Shown piece by piece: positions 19,669-46,710 of a DNA stretch of 54,268 nucleotides. Under the pieces are notes generated by a model. The model saw nothing but the letters and a program-made list of their open reading frames with translations. It was not told the DNA's origin and ran no database searches. How positions within the stretch are numbered: the stretch's first letter is position 1; each line of letters opens with the position of its first letter. The DNA comes from Gammaproteobacteria bacterium HGW-Gammaproteobacteria-1 (lineage in GTDB: Bacteria > Pseudomonadota > Gammaproteobacteria > Thiohalomonadales > Thiohalomonadaceae): positions 1 through 54,268 of the forward strand of contig PGZL01000009.1 of assembly GCA_002840095.1 (NCBI GenBank), written 5' to 3'. Made by a program: the position numbers and the translations under genes.

Positions 19669-19917
19669 TTACTCGTCCCCCTCGAAGGGCTCCAGTTCTT
19701 CCTTGCCGCTCTGGCTGGTGAGGATTTGCACTTTCTGCTCCGCTTCCTTCAGCGCGCCCTGGCAGGCGCGGGTAAGGGCGATGCCGCGCTCGAAATCCTT
19801 GAGCGACTGCTCCAGGGACAGTTCGCCCTGTTCCATGCGCTCGACCAGTTGTTCCAGCTCGGCCAGGGCCTGTTCGAAATCAAAGGGTTCGCTGTTGGTG
19901 CTGCTCTTTTTGGCCAC
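19669..19917 (-). CDS. xseB: Exodeoxyribonuclease VII small subunit
   Basis: An 82-residue helical protein with the signature [26 protein letters not shown] and the following FERGIAL. XseB packs with XseA to form exonuclease VII. The start is GTG (19915-19917) with GGAG upstream. It heads the xseB-ispA-dxs unit. The 247 bases between it and the histidine kinase stop (19918-20164) show no supportable gene. Confidence 0.95.
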
Positions 19918-20164
19918 GTCTCGTACTCCGGTGTCGGGCGGCTAACTTACCCCAGGCCGGGGGCAGAATCAAACCCGGTCCAGACTCAATGACAGGGCGG
20001 CTTTGCAGCGCATTCCACAGGACCGGAATGAGGGTAACCAATGATGAAAAATCCCGAAAAGGAGGCTGATCGAGGCGCGGAGCAGGGGCCTGGAATGGGA
20101 GTGCGCGCTGGGGGGAAAAGAGCACAGGTGCGACTTGCTCACCGTGCTCGGCAAACAGCCCCGC

Positions 20165-21493
20165 TCAGCCGCGGGGCGGCAGCTGCACGTCGACGCTGAG
20201 TCCGCCCAACTCTTTGGAACGGGCGAAGTGCATGCGGCCGGCATAGCTGGTCACAATGTCGCAGGCGATGGCCAGACCCAGGCCGTGACCGGCGATGGAT
20301 TCATCAATGCGCACGCCTCGCTCGGTCAGCGTCTCCAGTTGCTCCGGCGTACAACCGGGGCCGTCGTCCTCCACCCGCAAGTACGGACCCGCTTCGCTGT
20401 CCACGGTGATCCGGATATGGCCGCGGCACCACTTGCAGGCGTTGTCGAGCAGGTTGCCCAGCAATTCCAGCATGTCTTCCCGATCGGCGGAAAGGGTCAT
20501 ACCCGGCGCTAGGCGGCAGTCGAAGGTCAGTTCCTTGTCATGGTAAATGCGGCGCAGTACCTCGAGCAGGGGCGGGATTTCCTCTTCCGGTGTGAAGCGT
20601 CGTCCCGGCACGCTGCCGCCGGCGAGGCGTGCCCGCTTGAGTTCGCGATCGATGAGGTTGCGCATGGTGTCGATCGGGGCGACAAGGCGCTCGCCCAGCT
20701 GTGGTGCCGCCTTGAAGGTCGCATCGCCGGCCAGCTGGGTGAGCAGGCTGAGAGGGGCTTTCAGGGCATGGGCGAGATTGCCCAGCGCATGGCGCGAGCG
20801 CACCAGCCGATCGGCATAAGCGCCCAGCAGGCGGTTGATTTCCCGCGTCAGGGGCACCAGCTCCGTCGGCACCTGCTCCGGCAGTACGGCAATTTCGCCG
20901 CGTTCCAGGCTGGCAATGTCGGTGCGCACCTGTGCCAGCGGGCGCAGGCTGCGCCGGACCAGCAGGCGTTGCAACAGGATCAGGCCGCTCACCACGCCCA
21001 GTGACAACAGCAGGAACAGCCATTGGAAATGCCGCACGGTCTGTTCGATCAGCCCCAGGTCCTCCGCCACGGCGATGGTCAGGGCTTCGCCGGCCTTGCG
21101 GTAACCGCGGGCGACGATAAGCAGCGGTTGCCGTTCGGGTCCGCGCAGGGTCTGGCGCTGGAAGGCGCCGACCGGCAGCGGCGCAAGTGACATGTCCTGA
21201 TCCCACAGGGAACGCGAGCGCAGCAATTGCCTGGCAGACTCTATGCGGTAGTAGTGGCCGGAATAGGGGCGCTGATAGATGGGATCGGTGCGGGAGGTGT
21301 CGAGGGTGACGCTGCCGTCGGACAGTATTTGCAGGGCGGCCAGCAGGCTCTCGGCATCGTGTTCAAGGCGCGAGGCGATGTAATCCTCGGTCATGTGGCG
21401 CAGGAACAGGCTGACGGCAATCCCCTGCATCAGGAAGACCACCAGCAGAGTCGCCACCAGCCCGGTACTGAGGCGCCCTTGCAGGGAATTCAT
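20165..21493 (-). CDS. Membrane sensor histidine kinase, QseC/PhoQ-like
   Basis: A 442-residue kinase. Transmembrane helices are at about 10-31 and 157-177, flanking a periplasmic sensor of roughly 120 residues. HAMP-like residues follow. The phosphorylated His242 is in GNLAHALKAPLSLL, and the ATPase domain has NLLDNACKW, DDGPG and GHGLGLAI. It overlaps the response regulator by one base, and is the last gene of the cytochrome operon. The sensor signal is unknown; the PepSY protein next to the pair may take part. Confidence 0.95.
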   Translation of the reverse strand: MNSLQGRLSTGLVATLLVVFLMQGIAVSLFLRHMTEDYIASRLEHDAESLLAALQILSDGSVTLDTSRTDPIYQRPYSGHYYRIESARQLLRSRSLWDQDMSLAPLPVGAFQRQTLRGPERQPLLIVARGYRKAGEALTIAVAEDLGLIEQTVRHFQWLFLLLSLGVVSGLILLQRLLVRRSLRPLAQVRTDIASLERGEIAVLPEQVPTELVPLTREINRLLGAYADRLVRSRHALGNLAHALKAPLSLLTQLAGDATFKAAPQLGERLVAPIDTMRNLIDRELKRARLAGGSVPGRRFTPEEEIPPLLEVLRRIYHDKELTFDCRLAPGMTLSADREDMLELLGNLLDNACKWCRGHIRITVDSEAGPYLRVEDDGPGCTPEQLETLTERGVRIDESIAGHGLGLAIACDIVTSYAGRMHFARSKELGGLSVDVQLPPRG

Positions 21494-22158
21494 CAGCCGC
21501 GTTCCCCGAACATGTATCCCTGGCCGCGGTGGGTGGCGATGATGCCCTTGCCCAGCTTCTGCCGCAGGCGGTTCACGTAAACCTCGATGACGTTGCTGTC
21601 CTTGTCGGAATCGTTGTCATAAACATGTTCGGTGAGGCGGGACTTGGACAGCAGCTGGCCCGGGTGCAGCATGAAATAGCGCAGCAGACGGAATTCGGTA
21701 CCGGTGAGCGGATGCACCGTGCCCCCGGCGTCGGTGACGGTCTGGCGCTGCTCGTCGAGCGTGAGGCCGGGGGCTTGCAGGGTACCCGTGACGAGGGTGG
21801 TGGCGCGCCGCGTCACGGCCAGCAGGCGGGCGACCAGTTCCTCGGTGTGAAAGGGCTTGGCCAGATAGTCATCGGCCCCTGCGCGGAAGCCTTCCACTTT
21901 TTCATGCCAGGCATCGCGCGCCGTCAGCACCACTACCGGTACGGCATTGCTGCGCCGGCGCCAGTTGGCCAGCACCTCCAGGCCGGGACGCCCGGGCAGG
22001 CCCAGGTCAAGCACCACCGCATCATAGGGTTCGATGTCGCCCAGGGCCTCGCCGTCGATGCCGTTGGCGGCCAGATCGACGGCGAAACCGGCGCGTTCCA
22101 GATCGCAGCGCAGCTGGGCGCTCAGGGCGTTGTCGTCCTCCACCACCAGCAGACGCAT
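21493..22158 (-). CDS. OmpR-family response regulator, QseB/PmrA/PhoP subgroup
   Basis: A 221-residue regulator. The receiver domain has the acidic pocket EDD (7-9), phospho-acceptor Asp51 in VVLDLGLPG and Lys101. The winged-helix DNA-binding domain follows (LTGTEFRLLRYFMLHPG ... VIEVYVNRLRQKLG). This subgroup binds 11-bp-spaced direct repeats. Two TTAAG-N6-TTAAG sites occur upstream of the first gene of the same operon, suggesting autoregulation. It starts one base after the PepSY gene stop. Confidence 0.95.
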   Translation of the reverse strand: MRLLVVEDDNALSAQLRCDLERAGFAVDLAANGIDGEALGDIEPYDAVVLDLGLPGRPGLEVLANWRRRSNAVPVVVLTARDAWHEKVEGFRAGADDYLAKPFHTEELVARLLAVTRRATTLVTGTLQAPGLTLDEQRQTVTDAGGTVHPLTGTEFRLLRYFMLHPGQLLSKSRLTEHVYDNDSDKDSNVIEVYVNRLRQKLGKGIIATHRGQGYMFGERG

Positions 22159-22159
22159 C

Positions 22160-22471
22160 TCAGTCTTCCTGCTTGGCCTTGACCAGATCGCCGCTGCGCG
22201 CGTCGAAGTACAGCTCCCAGACGATGCCCTGCTCGTCCACCAGTTCCACTTCATACAGCATGCGATTTCTTTTCTCTTCCAGATGGAGTTCCAGTATCCG
22301 CCCGGGGCGCTCCCGCTGCGCACGTTCGATGATGACCTCCAGCGGCAGGATGTCGCCGGCATCGCGCAGGCGGCGGGCGCGGTCATGCTCATCCTCGGCG
22401 TGGGTGCCGAGGCTGAATATCAGCAGCGCGGTGCCGAGCAGAGCGCCGGAAAGAGCGCTCAGTCGTCCCAT
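22160..22471 (-). CDS. Exported PepSY-domain protein
   Basis: A 103-residue protein with a signal peptide (1-25, THA cleavage) and one PepSY domain, with RILELHLEEKRNRMLYEVEL and the characteristic WELYFDARSGDLVK end. Such small PepSY proteins are often encoded next to two-component systems and cytochromes; their role is unproven. I use the Met at 22471 because the signal starts there. It overlaps the diheme cytochrome gene by 13 bases. Confidence 0.9.
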   Translation of the reverse strand: MGRLSALSGALLGTALLIFSLGTHAEDEHDRARRLRDAGDILPLEVIIERAQRERPGRILELHLEEKRNRMLYEVELVDEQGIVWELYFDARSGDLVKAKQED

Positions 22472-22995
22472 CGGCCGTGCCCCGGGACGTTGATTTCCCG
22501 CTCGCTGTAGGAACCGGTCTCCGCACGGGTGTGGCAGGCGTTGCAATTGCTCAGGCTGCCGATCTGCGTGTTGCCCTTGATGACGGACGACGGGATCTCG
22601 CGGTGCTTGTGCACGATGTAGGGAACCTCGGTGATGCGCATGGGCGTCTCCTCCGGATACAGCGAACGGGCAATCTTCACGGCGCGATATTCGCGGGCGT
22701 GGTCGGCTGCATTATAGAGCAGGTAATTCTCAATGGCGTCGCGATCCGTCGCGGCCAGCGCGGCATTGTCGCCAAAGTGATCATCCAGGCCGGCCATGAT
22801 TTTTTTCCATGAGGTGGCTGGCAGCAGACCGGGCTGGTAGGCGAAGTGGCAGCTGCCGCATTCCTGCTGATACAGCGGCAGGCTTGCCGGGGCCACATCG
22901 AGCCCGCGGCGGCGATCGTCTTCGCCCACCACCGCCAGGCTGGTGAATACGAGGCCGACGCCGGCCAGTACAGACCAGAGATTTTTTATTGCCAT
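22459..22995 (-). CDS. Periplasmic diheme cytochrome c (DHC family)
   Basis: A 178-residue protein with a signal peptide (1-24) and two c-heme motifs, CGSCH (46-50) and CNACH (151-155). The first half resembles the DHC family (LYQQECGSCHFAYQPGLLP, SWKKIMAGLDDHFG). DHC is known from Rhodobacter sphaeroides as the electron partner of SHP. The frame is open far upstream, but the ATG at 22993-22995 has AAGGAG and begins the signal, so upstream sequence is discarded. The SHP-like gene lies just upstream. Confidence 0.93.
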   Translation of the reverse strand: MAIKNLWSVLAGVGLVFTSLAVVGEDDRRRGLDVAPASLPLYQQECGSCHFAYQPGLLPATSWKKIMAGLDDHFGDNAALAATDRDAIENYLLYNAADHAREYRAVKIARSLYPEETPMRITEVPYIVHKHREIPSSVIKGNTQIGSLSNCNACHTRAETGSYSEREINVPGHGRWDD

Positions 22996-23009
22996 GGTGA
23001 GTGTCTCCT

Positions 23010-23390
23010 TCATTGGGTCCTGATGTAGGTGAGAATGTCGCCTTTTTCCTGCGCCGTGCAGGCGCGGCCCCAGGCACTTTCGCAGTTGCGCCGGAACCAC
23101 TTTTCGATGAAGTAGTCGTCGGTGATCCGCTTGGGATTGACCGAGGGCGCCATGGGGTCGATGGCCTTGCCGGTCTTGGCGTGCTTGCCGACGGTACGCA
23201 GGTCGGTGTTGTGGCAGGTGGCGCAGGTCTGCGCGCCGCCCTCGCGAGTCCACAACGCCGCACCGGCGGCGGCGCTGAACGGGCCGGCCCCGGCGGCGCG
23301 GTACTCCTGCAACAGTTGGTCCAGGGTGGCGGCGTGAACGGTGCCGGTAGACAGGACGGTGATGATCAGCACGATAGTGGGCAGTTTCAT
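23010..23390 (-). CDS. SHP-like monoheme cytochrome c (DUF1924)
   Basis: A 126-residue exported protein (signal 1-20, cleavage VHA). The single heme motif is CATCH (56-60). By comparison from memory with R. sphaeroides SHP, whose heme has an unusual asparagine ligand next to a disulfide, the equivalents here are Asn102 in RRNC and Cys103/Cys111. SHP binds oxygen or nitric oxide when reduced. It lies between the cytochrome b and DHC genes, four bases after the former, as in the known shp clusters. Confidence 0.9.
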   Translation of the reverse strand: MKLPTIVLIITVLSTGTVHAATLDQLLQEYRAAGAGPFSAAAGAALWTREGGAQTCATCHNTDLRTVGKHAKTGKAIDPMAPSVNPKRITDDYFIEKWFRRNCESAWGRACTAQEKGDILTYIRTQ

Positions 23391-23393
23391 GGC

Positions 23394-23978
23394 TCAGTCC
23401 TCGCTGGGTACATGGGGTTTGCGACCGGTCAGCATGGCCAGTACCAGGTTCTCGTGATGCAGCCAGCCGCTGACGAAGACCCCGGCGACGTGCACGAACA
23501 CCATCAACAGGGTGAGATTGGCCAGTGCCTCGTGGATTTCCTCCAACGCCTCGCTCCAGAAGCCGCCGGGGTTGCCCGCCAGCAGGGCGAAGGGACCGGA
23601 TGCAGCCTCGCCGGCGCCGTAGGTCAGCAGCCCGGTCAGGGTGGTGAGCAGCAGGGCCACCAGCAGCGCCACTACCATCCAGCCGCCGGCGGGATTGTGG
23701 CCCAGGTAATGAGTCGGACGGCGGCTGAACAGGCTTTTCAGGTAATCCATTACGGCGCGCGGACCGCGGACAAAATCGGTGAAGCGCGCATGGCGCGTCC
23801 CGAACACGCCCCACAGCAGGCGGAACAGCACCAGGCCGATAATGGTGTAGCCGGCCTGAACGTGCAGGGCGAGGTAATGATCCTCAGTGACGAAGGCGAC
23901 GATGAATGCCGTCACCAGGCTCCAGTGGAACACGCGCACCAGCGGGTCCCACACCTTCAATTCCTTTGCTGTTTGCAT
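23394..23978 (-). CDS. Cytochrome b561-type membrane protein
   Basis: A 194-residue four-helix membrane protein. Candidate heme-b ligands are His18 (VFHWS), His39 (LALHVQAGY), His149 (IHEALAN) and His163 (VFVHVAGV). It likely passes electrons from the quinone pool to the periplasmic DHC and SHP encoded next. A GGAGAC site precedes the ATG. It is the first gene of a six-gene minus-strand operon, with a regulator box 62 bases upstream. Confidence 0.95.
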   Translation of the reverse strand: MQTAKELKVWDPLVRVFHWSLVTAFIVAFVTEDHYLALHVQAGYTIIGLVLFRLLWGVFGTRHARFTDFVRGPRAVMDYLKSLFSRRPTHYLGHNPAGGWMVVALLVALLLTTLTGLLTYGAGEAASGPFALLAGNPGGFWSEALEEIHEALANLTLLMVFVHVAGVFVSGWLHHENLVLAMLTGRKPHVPSED

Positions 23979-24039
23979 GACGATGTCTCCTCGCAGAATC
24001 CCGGTCGTCCGGGTGTTGAGGCTACTATTCCACCGCTGC

Positions 24040-24056
24040 CTTAATTCACGCTTAAC
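24040..24056 (-). promoter_or_regulatory. PmrA/QseB-like response-regulator box, proximal
   Basis: On the minus strand it reads GTTAAG-CGTGA-ATTAAG, fitting the 11-bp-period direct repeat (HTTAAK-N5-HTTAAK) bound by PmrA/QseB-type regulators. It is 62 bases upstream of the cytochrome b start. The operon encodes a regulator of this class. Confidence 0.65.
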
Positions 24057-24239
24057 AGGAACTGAAGGCGGGAAACACGGTGGTGAGGACGTTGAAAGCC
24101 GGCTCCCCCTGGTCCCCGGGGGAGGGGAGGGGAGGAGGAGCCGGGTACTGCAACAGGGTTTATTGGTGCGCCGGCGTGCGGGGATGCCGGGACGGGCGGG
24201 AGTTTTTTTGCGGAAGCGGCCCTACTGTTGCACCGCCGC
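24057..24239. other. Segment between two copies of the regulator box
   Basis: No supportable gene. It holds G-rich tracts (GGGGAGGGGAGGGGAGGAGG near 24119-24140) and lies between two near-copies of a 40-bp sequence that includes the box and the adjoining GGTGGAATAGTAG-like region. Confidence 0.5.
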
Positions 24240-24256
24240 CTTAACTCAAGCTTAAA
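24240..24256 (-). promoter_or_regulatory. PmrA/QseB-like response-regulator box, distal
   Basis: Minus strand reads TTTAAG-CTTGA-GTTAAG. The adjacent CACCGCCGCC/CACCGCTGCC and CTACTGTTG/CTACTATTC bases are also duplicated relative to the proximal copy, so the similarity extends over about 36-40 bases. Confidence 0.6.
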
Positions 24257-24275
24257 AACGGCGGGGCGGAAAAAC

Positions 24276-24310
24276 AAAAAGGCCGGTCATCAAGCGATGA
24301 CCGGCCTTTT
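24276..24310 (-). terminator. Rho-independent terminator of tRNA-Glu
   Basis: Perfect 11-bp stem GGCCGGTCATC (24281-24291)/GATGACCGGCC (24296-24306) with a T-rich tail on the minus strand, directly 3' of the tRNA. Confidence 0.93.
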
Positions 24311-24318
24311 GATTTGTG

Positions 24319-24394
24319 TGGTACTCCCAAGGGGAATCGAACCCCTGTTTTCGCCGTGAGAGGGCGACGTCCTAGACCGCTAGACGATGGGAGC
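24319..24394 (-). tRNA. tRNA-Glu, anticodon CTC
   Basis: A 76-base cloverleaf with encoded CCA. The acceptor stem pairs GCTCCCA with TGGGAGT. The anticodon loop CTCTCAC gives anticodon CTC, and the T-loop is GGTTCGATTCC. It reads GAG codons. A promoter match overlaps the start of pcnB upstream and a terminator follows. Confidence 0.96.
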
Positions 24395-24430
24395 ATAATT
24401 CGCGCTGTCAGACGACGAAAAGCGCGTGGT

Positions 24431-46274: not shown

Positions 46275-46454
46275 CCGGCTCCGGGAGGGTGTAATTAGTT
46301 GTAGCTATCCGGTTCGAATTGGCATACAGTGACTCCCGCGTCAGATTATTGCTATTGGCAGTTTAAGTAGTTCCCTTCTGGATACTTCTCGAATTCCCCA
46401 GTTCATTACCTGTACGCACATTTCTCTATTAATTGTTATTAAAGGTAATTCATC

Positions 46455-46658
46455 ATGGCTACAGGTACTGTAAAGTGGTTCAACGAGTCCAAGGGTTTCG
46501 GTTTCATTACCCCCGATGACGGCAGCGCCGACGTGTTCGCGCATTTCTCCGCCATCCAGGGCACCGGTTTCAAGACCCTGCCGGAAGGCCAGAAGGTCAG
46601 CTACGACGTGACCAAGGGCCCGAAGGGTCTGCAGGCGAGCAACATCGTCTCCTGCTGA
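46455..46658 (+). CDS. Cold-shock-domain protein
   Basis: A 67-residue single cold-shock domain with RNP1 KGFGFIT and RNP2 DVFAHFS, binding single-stranded RNA or DNA. The aligned start [17 protein letters not shown] is canonical. The preceding roughly 180 bases (46275-46454) are AT-rich and without a gene, fitting the long leader typical of csp mRNAs, though no cold-box was identified. A strong terminator follows. Confidence 0.96.
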
Positions 46659-46676
46659 GCCGCTCGCGGTTGAGTC

Positions 46677-46710
46677 AAAAGAAACCCCGCTTCGGCGGGG
46701 TTTCTTTTTT
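46677..46710 (+). terminator. Rho-independent terminator of the cold-shock gene
   Basis: Fourteen-base arms (46677-46690 and 46695-46708) around a TTCG tetraloop, A-rich on the left and T-rich on the right. Confidence 0.95.

What the first reader, a model, noticed from the sequence alone, without database searches (positions are those of the whole stretch)
20165..24056. Six-gene SHP-DHC-cytochrome b operon with its own PepSY protein and two-component system
The SHP-like protein keeps the Asn next to a Cys pair that in R. sphaeroides SHP provides the unusual heme ligand and disulfide. The circuit combines an O2/NO-reactive cytochrome, its diheme donor, a quinol-linked cytochrome b and a private sensor-regulator pair. 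The signal sensed and the physiological reaction remain unknown in the family.
Basis: partly seen in the sequence, partly recalled or inferred. Interest (0 to 1): 0.6.

Follow-up and report, generated by a model that had tools for sequence, protein, structure and literature searches.

The report
Iron-sensor-type switch controls oxygen-binding cytochrome
A known six-gene cytochrome operon of proteobacteria carries a regulatory switch of the same family as a bacterial ferrous-iron sensor, plus the DNA site that this switch is expected to bind, so the old question of what turns the cytochrome on can now be tested directly.

Summary
Window 20165-23978 (minus strand) is one compact operon: cytochrome b (PF01292), SHP (PF09086), diheme DHC (PF09626), a PepSY protein, an OmpR-type regulator and a sensor kinase. 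The arrangement is not new: Meyer et al. 2010 describe it (Orf1/RR/SK1), and the kinase carries their SK1 motifs.

What is added concerns the regulators. (1) The promoter holds TTAAG-N6-TTAAG, the published BqsR operator; the only two exact copies in the 4.23 Mb genome both lie there. Of 58 co-linear SK1-SHP operons scored, 39 have TTMAG-N6-TTMAG upstream and 53 with at most one mismatch (shuffle means 0.08 and 2.24; exact in 2 of 302 other ORFs). (2) Kinase, regulator and PepSY protein are 45, 58 and 41% identical to a Pseudomonas BqsS-type locus, and such kinases nest inside the SHP-linked clade. (3) BqsS binds Fe2+ through E45/E48; the aligned residues here are H45/E48.

Most likely this is an autoregulated, metal-responsive (probably Fe(II)) operon making a quinol-to-SHP chain that acts on O2 or NO. 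Signal and chemistry are inferred. Against: the V. cholerae orthologue ignored iron, one same-genus genome lacks the box, and QseC-type SHP operons also have it.

The parts
24240..24255 (-). upstream operator copy TTAAGCTTGAGTTAAG
   Evidence: exact match; one of only two in the 4.23 Mb genome
24040..24066 (-). promoter-proximal operator: three half-sites in phase, TTCAG-N6-TTAAG-N6-TTAAG
   Evidence: the 16-mer TTAAGCGTGAATTAAG is identical in two of three other genus members that have this six-gene operon
23394..23978 (-). cytochrome b (Ni_hydr_CYTB/b561 type), conserved His18, 39, 149, 163
   Evidence: PF01292 4.9e-25; His kept in 122 to 125 of 125 rows
23010..23390 (-). SHP, monoheme cytochrome (CATCH), predicted Asn102 ligand and C103-C111 disulfide
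   Evidence: PF09086 2.5e-34; 1dw0 1.6e-21
22459..22995 (-). DHC, soluble diheme cytochrome c, two CxxCH, His73 and His131
   Evidence: PF09626 2.6e-39; 3u99 8.2e-36
22160..22471 (-). small PepSY protein with an apparent N-terminal signal peptide (Orf1; BqsQ/DbfQ-like)
   Evidence: PF03413 1.8e-8; 40.9% over 93 residues to the PepSY protein beside the Pseudomonas kinase L370; signal peptide read by eye
21493..22158 (-). OmpR-type response regulator (BqsR-like)
   Evidence: best NCBIfam scores PmrA and QseB, below their cut-offs; 58.3% over 216 residues to the regulator at L370
20165..21493 (-). SK1-type sensor kinase (BqsS-like): H45 D46 x E48, SGHYY, RSRSLWD
   Evidence: 45.4% over 436 residues to L370; sensor model pLDDT 90.7

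Best explanation
This is an SK1-type SHP operon whose regulators form a BqsRS/DbfQRS-type three-part switch. Shown by sequence: one compact operon; intact heme ligands in three cytochromes; kinase, regulator and PepSY protein homologous to a Pseudomonas BqsS-type locus; the BqsR-type operator at the operon's own promoter. Inferred: the periplasmic part of the kinase binds a divalent metal, most likely Fe(II), through H45/D46/E48 in the helix that leaves the membrane. The PepSY protein binds the sensor and sets its kinase/phosphatase balance. The phosphorylated regulator binds TTMAG-N6-TTMAG and switches on the operon, itself included. The product is a chain from quinol through cytochrome b and DHC to SHP, which keeps SHP reduced so that it binds O2 or NO and removes it (for example by NO dioxygenation) where Fe(II) meets oxygen or nitrite.
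For: Operon anatomy and intact ligands. Operator: only two exact copies in the genome, both here, against five of the reversed control; 39 of 58 scored co-linear SK1 operons exact and 53 of 58 within one mismatch, shuffle means 0.08 and 2.24; other spacers 0-4 of 58, opposite strand 0 of 58, other ORFs 2 of 302. Published BqsR operator TTAAG(N)6TTAAG (PMC4682146). Kinship with a Pseudomonas BqsS-type locus. BqsS binds Fe2+ with E48 as key ligand (PMC12666569); E48 is E in 50 of 60 co-linear SHP-linked kinases, H45 in 58, D46 in 60. A PepSY protein binds the sensor in the Vibrio relative DbfS (PMC12714742). A. vinosum SHP cluster Alvin_0020-0026 and FieF are induced on pyrite (PMC11267869). SHP NO dioxygenase activity as cited in PMC2909971.
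Against: The V. cholerae orthologue DbfS did not respond to Fe(II) or Fe(III) in a reporter (PMC12714742). Position 45 is His, so the ExxE motif is not met to the letter. QseC-type SHP operons also have the box (5 of 10 exact). Same-genus genome G001 has a different upstream region without it. Neighbouring genes show no iron theme. Pyrite growth changes sulfur as well as iron, and the A. vinosum sensor type is unknown here; two Thiodictyon loci (Chromatiaceae) have the other sensor type.
Confidence: 0.55

Rival explanations
1. DbfQRS-like envelope-stress switch: the kinase senses outer-membrane damage through the PepSY protein, and the SHP chain is part of a general envelope or redox stress response; metal is not the cue.
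For: DbfQ, a PepSY protein encoded beside dbfRS, binds the DbfS sensor; DbfRS answers envelope damage and not iron (PMC12714742). Same three-gene module here.
Against: In the kinase tree the window sits in the 70-row half with the Pseudomonas BqsS-type kinases.
Confidence: 0.22
2. Redox loop: the operon senses NO, O2 or the redox state of its own cytochromes, directly or through the PepSY protein.
For: SHP binds O2 and NO (PMC2909971) and is encoded with the regulators.
Against: The Pfam scan shows no heme, Fe-S or PAS domain in the kinase at E <= 0.001. The same kinase type occurs beside cytochrome b alone, or beside two PepSY genes without any of these cytochromes, so sensing does not need SHP.
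Confidence: 0.12
3. SHP is an oxygenase for an organic amine or other substrate (the 2010 proposal), and the kinase senses that substrate.
For: Proposal and amine binding in PMC2909971.
Against: No substrate gene family recurs beside the operons in the neighbour survey (clusters were not annotated). The sensor model has no confident PDB match at E <= 0.001, so no ligand can be read from it.
Confidence: 0.1

Closest known systems
SHP/DHC/cytochrome b operon with Orf1/RR/SK1 (Meyer, Kyndt and Cusanovich 2010, PMC2909971)
   Same: Same six gene families in one operon; SHP with Asn ligand and Cys pair; SK1 motifs (SGHYYR, RSRSLWD).
   Different: Nothing essential. The operator and the link of SK1 to BqsS are not in the sections of that paper that I read (abstract, Background, second part of Results, Discussion).
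BqsPQRS (CarRS) of Pseudomonas aeruginosa (PMC4682146, PMC12666569)
   Same: PepSY protein upstream of RR and HK, operator TTAAG-N6-TTAAG, acidic/His metal-site position 45-48, 41-58% identity to a Pseudomonas locus that shows the BqsS residues.
   Different: BqsS has E45 where the window has H45; in the Pseudomonas-type loci no SHP, DHC or cytochrome b was found in the operon, and there are two PepSY genes.
DbfQRS of Vibrio cholerae (PMC12714742)
   Same: Small PepSY protein encoded directly upstream of RR and HK.
   Different: Answers envelope damage and not iron; probable Vibrio sensors fall in the other half of the kinase tree.
QseBC (SK2) SHP operons
   Same: SHP-DHC-cytb with an operon-borne RR and HK and the same kind of box (5 of 10 exact, 9 of 10 within one mismatch).
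   Different: Different sensor (no match to the SK1 sensor profile), no PepSY gene in these ten operons as labelled; the QseC identity rests on PMC2909971, not on a call.

Membership tests
SHP (sphaeroides heme protein, PF09086) | PF09086 match, CxxCH, Asn sixth ligand | tested here: met
SHP (sphaeroides heme protein, PF09086) | Cys pair following the Asn ligand | tested here: met
   C103 and C111; that they form a disulfide was not tested
SHP (sphaeroides heme protein, PF09086) | binds O2 and NO when reduced | not testable with these tools
   needs spectroscopy
SK1-type SHP operon (Meyer 2010) | cytB, SHP, DHC, Orf1, RR, SK1 in one operon | tested here: met
SK1-type SHP operon (Meyer 2010) | sensor motifs SGVYWQ and RSRSLWD or variants | tested here: met
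   SGHYYR and RSRSLWD
BqsRS family | sequence kinship of kinase and regulator with Pseudomonas BqsRS | tested here: met
   45.4% over 436 and 58.3% over 216 residues to L370, an unnamed Pseudomonas-type genome with REEAEN at 44-49; Pseudomonas clade nests among SHP-linked kinases
BqsRS family | operator TTAAG-N6-TTAAG at a regulated promoter | tested here: met
   binding itself not tested
BqsRS family | ExxE iron motif in the periplasmic domain | tested here: not met
   HDAE at 45-48: E48 kept, E45 replaced by His. I therefore do not claim that it is an Fe2+ sensor, only that it works like one
BqsRS family | activation by Fe2+ | not testable with these tools
   needs a reporter or kinase assay
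DbfQRS module | PepSY protein directly upstream of RR and HK | tested here: met
DbfQRS module | PepSY protein binds the sensor domain; response to envelope damage | not testable with these tools
   needs binding and reporter assays

The most novel reading that the evidence does not exclude
SK1-type SHP operons are the setting from which the BqsRS family arose: Fe(II) outside the cell, read by a His/Glu metal site and tuned by a PepSY protein, switches on a quinol-to-SHP chain that removes the O2 or NO formed where Fe(II) meets oxygen or nitrite. P. aeruginosa BqsRS would be a derived branch that kept sensor and operator and lost the cytochromes.
Probability: 0.3. Interest if true: 0.7.

Novelty: new member of a known kind. 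Interest (0 to 1): 0.5.

Why it matters
SHP has had no settled physiological role since its discovery (more than 24 years before the 2010 paper, PMC2909971), and that paper left the SK1 signal open. Placing SK1 in the family of a characterised Fe2+ sensor, with an operator conserved upstream of dozens of SHP operons, gives a cheap test (metal panel plus promoter reporter). It also points to Fe(II)-rich, oxidant-exposed settings, such as the iron-oxidising Mariprofundus family, as the place to look for SHP function.

Tried and rejected
A neighbour survey (1,081 unlabelled ORFs within 7.5 kb of SHP, clustered by BLAST) showed no obvious iron or metal family; the largest clusters (17 and 15 loci) were judged by eye only and not annotated. 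Foldseek of the sensor model against the PDB gave nothing at E <= 0.001; a zinc-sensor domain (CzcS, 5gpo) at rank 13 was not used as evidence. The sigma-70 scan found 0 promoters in 19900-24420, which says little for an activator-dependent promoter; it also marked terminator-like sites at about the chance number. I first took the box for SK1-specific and dropped that, because SK2-type SHP operons have it. I dropped membership by a strict ExxE motif (H45). Searches of the held library for a paper that joins SHP or DUF1924 with BqsRS showed none in their listings; most subscription papers are not held.

Rows dropped before counts; loci with the same last 90 residues of SHP were counted once (135 kept); loci whose first ORF begins within 120 bases of a contig end were not scored (3 of 61 SK1 co-linear, 5 of 52 without kinase). 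Gene starts are mechanical, so box distances are rough: 26 of 39 exact boxes end 45-67 bases before the called start, the other 13 lie nearer or inside the called ORF. Some loci in the 'no kinase' group are short and may have lost their kinase at a contig end; the 11 'other' kinases include four (L035, L118, L186, L197) that have H45 and H80; L118 and L186 are co-linear types mislabelled by the script, L035 and L197 are divergent; the other seven lack both His; 21 co-linear kinases on a hand-written list were left out of the tree as near-duplicates or to thin large groups (40 used).
Full report
WHAT IS THERE. The minus strand of 20165-23978 holds six genes in one tight series: cytochrome b (23978-23394), SHP (23390-23010), DHC (22995-22459), a PepSY protein (22471-22160), an OmpR-type response regulator (22158-21493) and a sensor kinase (21493-20165). 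The junctions are 3 nt, 14 nt, 13 nt overlap, 1 nt and 1 nt overlap. Pfam places each of the six above its cut-off. The upstream neighbour is a tRNA-Glu followed by a terminator-like hairpin (24277-24310), so the operon's own promoter region is about 24276-23979.

THE CYTOCHROMES LOOK INTACT. SHP aligns with R. sphaeroides SHP (1dw0, 1.6e-21); the Trp, Asn and two Cys fall on W98, N102, C103 and C111. Across 134 SHP loci these are 134, 134, 133 and 133, in a sample chosen by similarity. DHC matches solved DHC chains (3u99, 8.2e-36); its two CxxCH motifs and H73 and H131 are kept in 128 or 129 of 129 rows. Cytochrome b keeps His 18, 39, 149 and 163 in 122 to 125 of 125 rows, as expected of a two-heme cytochrome. 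Quinol oxidation and O2/NO binding were not tested.

THE OPERON ITSELF IS KNOWN. Meyer et al. 2010 (PMC2909971; abstract, Background, second part of Results and Discussion read) describe SHP operons of 3-6 genes, with a single six-gene operon including Orf1, RR and SK1 in Magnetococcus, Reinekea, Mariprofundus and Shewanella. Their SK1 motifs are variants of SGVYWQ and RSRSLWD; the window kinase has SGHYYR and RSRSLWD. They leave the SK1 signal open.

AN OPERATOR AT THE PROMOTER. Two exact copies of TTAAG-N6-TTAAG lie upstream of cytochrome b, at 24040-24055 and 24240-24255. They are the only two in the 4.23 Mb genome; the pattern read backwards has five matches. With one mismatch allowed there are 23 sites in the genome against 93 for the control. 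With TTMAG half-sites there are seven against eight, so sheer number is not above chance; the clustering is what stands out. Three of the seven are here (24040, 24051, 24240). One lies before a second PepSY-RR-HK operon of the same genome, upstream of two His-rich small ORFs (L136:5465). Of the other three, two lie inside ORFs of over 100 codons and one between ORFs. In the genus the same 16-mer stands 59-61 bases before cytochrome b in the window, G002 and G003, while most of the flanking DNA differs; G001 has another upstream region and no box. G004, also in the genus, has a different SHP operon (two cytb genes, SHP, DHC, no kinase seen) with TTAAGGCGGGGTTCAG upstream.

THE OPERATOR IS CONSERVED ACROSS SHP OPERONS. 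Of 135 distinct SHP loci, 61 are co-linear SK1 operons and 58 of these could be scored: 39 have TTMAG-N6-TTMAG exactly and 53 with at most one mismatch. Shuffle means are 0.08 and 2.24, maxima 2 and 6 in 100. Spacers of 2-5 and 7-12 give 0-4 of 58, the opposite strand 0 of 58, and 302 other ORFs of the same loci 2. In the other groups exact boxes are found in 2 of 7 (divergent SK1), 5 of 10 (SK2-type), 2 of 5 (other kinase) and 17 of 47 (no kinase seen). The box is thus typical of the regulator subfamily and of SHP promoters, not unique to SK1. PMC4682146 (passages read) gives the P. aeruginosa BqsR operator as TTAAG(N)6TTAAG, with extra half-sites adding to output.

THE REGULATORS ARE RELATIVES OF BqsRS. 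Pseudomonas-type genomes (unnamed) carry PepSY-PepSY-RR-HK with a box upstream (L297-L300, L305), the order of bqsPQRS; PMC12714742 says that PA2658 and PA2659 are PepSY proteins (passages read). One such kinase (L370) reads REEAEN in the place where PMC12666569 gives R44 E45 xx E48 N49 for PaBqsS (passages read). The window kinase is 45.4% identical to it over 436 residues, the regulator 58.3% over 216 and the PepSY protein 40.9% over 93. In a tree of 91 kinases (quick IQ-TREE) the eight Pseudomonas-type rows form one clade (support 93) inside a 70-row half that holds all 40 SHP-co-linear rows used; the other 21 rows, among them the window genome's second kinase, form the other half (SH-aLRT 98). 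26 of 88 inner branches are under 80, the root is not inferred, and the exact sister group of the Pseudomonas clade is open.

THE SENSOR SITE. PaBqsS binds Fe2+ with E48 as key ligand and E45 in support, and its ATPase is stimulated by Fe2+ alone among the metals tried (PMC12666569). The window kinase has H45, D46, A47 and E48 in the aligned place. In 60 co-linear SHP-linked kinases H45 is kept in 58, D46 in 60, E48 in 50 and the His of SGHYY (H80) in 57. Of eleven others, seven lack both His; the four that have them are described under Tried and rejected. A model of the sensor from 17 sequences (mean pLDDT 90.7) puts 45-48 in a helix (2-53) that continues from the membrane; no PDB entry matches at E <= 0.001.

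THE SAME SWITCH WITHOUT SHP. Kinases of this type also occur beside cytochrome b without SHP (L277, L278, L282, L283, L285, L303, L312), beside cytochrome b and DHC (L280) or DHC alone (L315), with an exact box upstream in each of these nine loci.

LINK TO IRON. In A. vinosum, Alvin_0020-0026 (both DHC, cytochrome b, SHP, a membrane protein-like ORF, RR and HK) and the adjacent FieF Alvin_0019 are induced on pyrite against sulfide, SHP second on the list (log2FC 7.10), while 0020, 0022 and 0023 were suppressed on elemental sulfur in an earlier study (PMC11267869, passages read). Pyrite brings sulfur as well as iron, and the sensor type of A. vinosum is not known to me. SHP is found in 45 of 74 genomes of the Mariprofundus family, 26 of 36 good ones. 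By my own count the other genomes of the phylum sample give 41 of 324 (86 of 398 less the 45 of 74). The genomes are related, so this is a hint only.

AGAINST. DbfS of V. cholerae, called an orthologue of BqsS, did not respond to Fe(II) or Fe(III) and reports envelope damage (PMC12714742, abstract and passages read). The ExxE motif is not met. One genus member with the operon has no box. The box also marks SK2-type operons.

VERDICT. The new, testable content is the operator and the place of SK1 in the BqsRS family. From these, a divalent metal, most likely Fe(II), is the best guess for the signal, and O2/NO removal the best guess for the product's task. The Fe(II)-nitrite-NO idea is my inference from general chemistry and comes from no call.

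Noticed in passing
L136:5465-8715 (window genome, contig C1 about 282964-286214): Second SK1-like operon: a TTMAG-N6-TTMAG box, two His-rich small ORFs (one with a lipobox-like start), PepSY, RR and HK. It may be another metal-responsive switch.
   Followed up: partly
window 24031-24066 and 24230-24262: The two operator copies share further sequence downstream (GGCRGCGGTGSAAYAGTAG on the minus strand), as if a promoter piece had been duplicated about 200 bases apart (sequence).
   Followed up: no
L284 and L288: BqsS-like PepSY-RR-HK sets preceded by an ORF with nine CxxCH motifs (with cytochrome b in L284) instead of SHP.
   Followed up: no
L310: A kinase of the other SK1 half is followed by ORFs with eight and seven CxxCH motifs.
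   Followed up: no
L293 (G087:C52), upstream of the kinase: Fourteen copies of TTAAGAAGGGATTAAG at 68-73 base spacing, which looks like a CRISPR array and not a set of operators.
   Followed up: no
L147:1616-2281: A 221-aa ORF between cytochrome b and SHP belongs to a family found near SHP in ten loci; not annotated.
   Followed up: no
window 46340-46709 (+): cspA thermoregulator RNA (RF01766, 107 bits).
   Followed up: no
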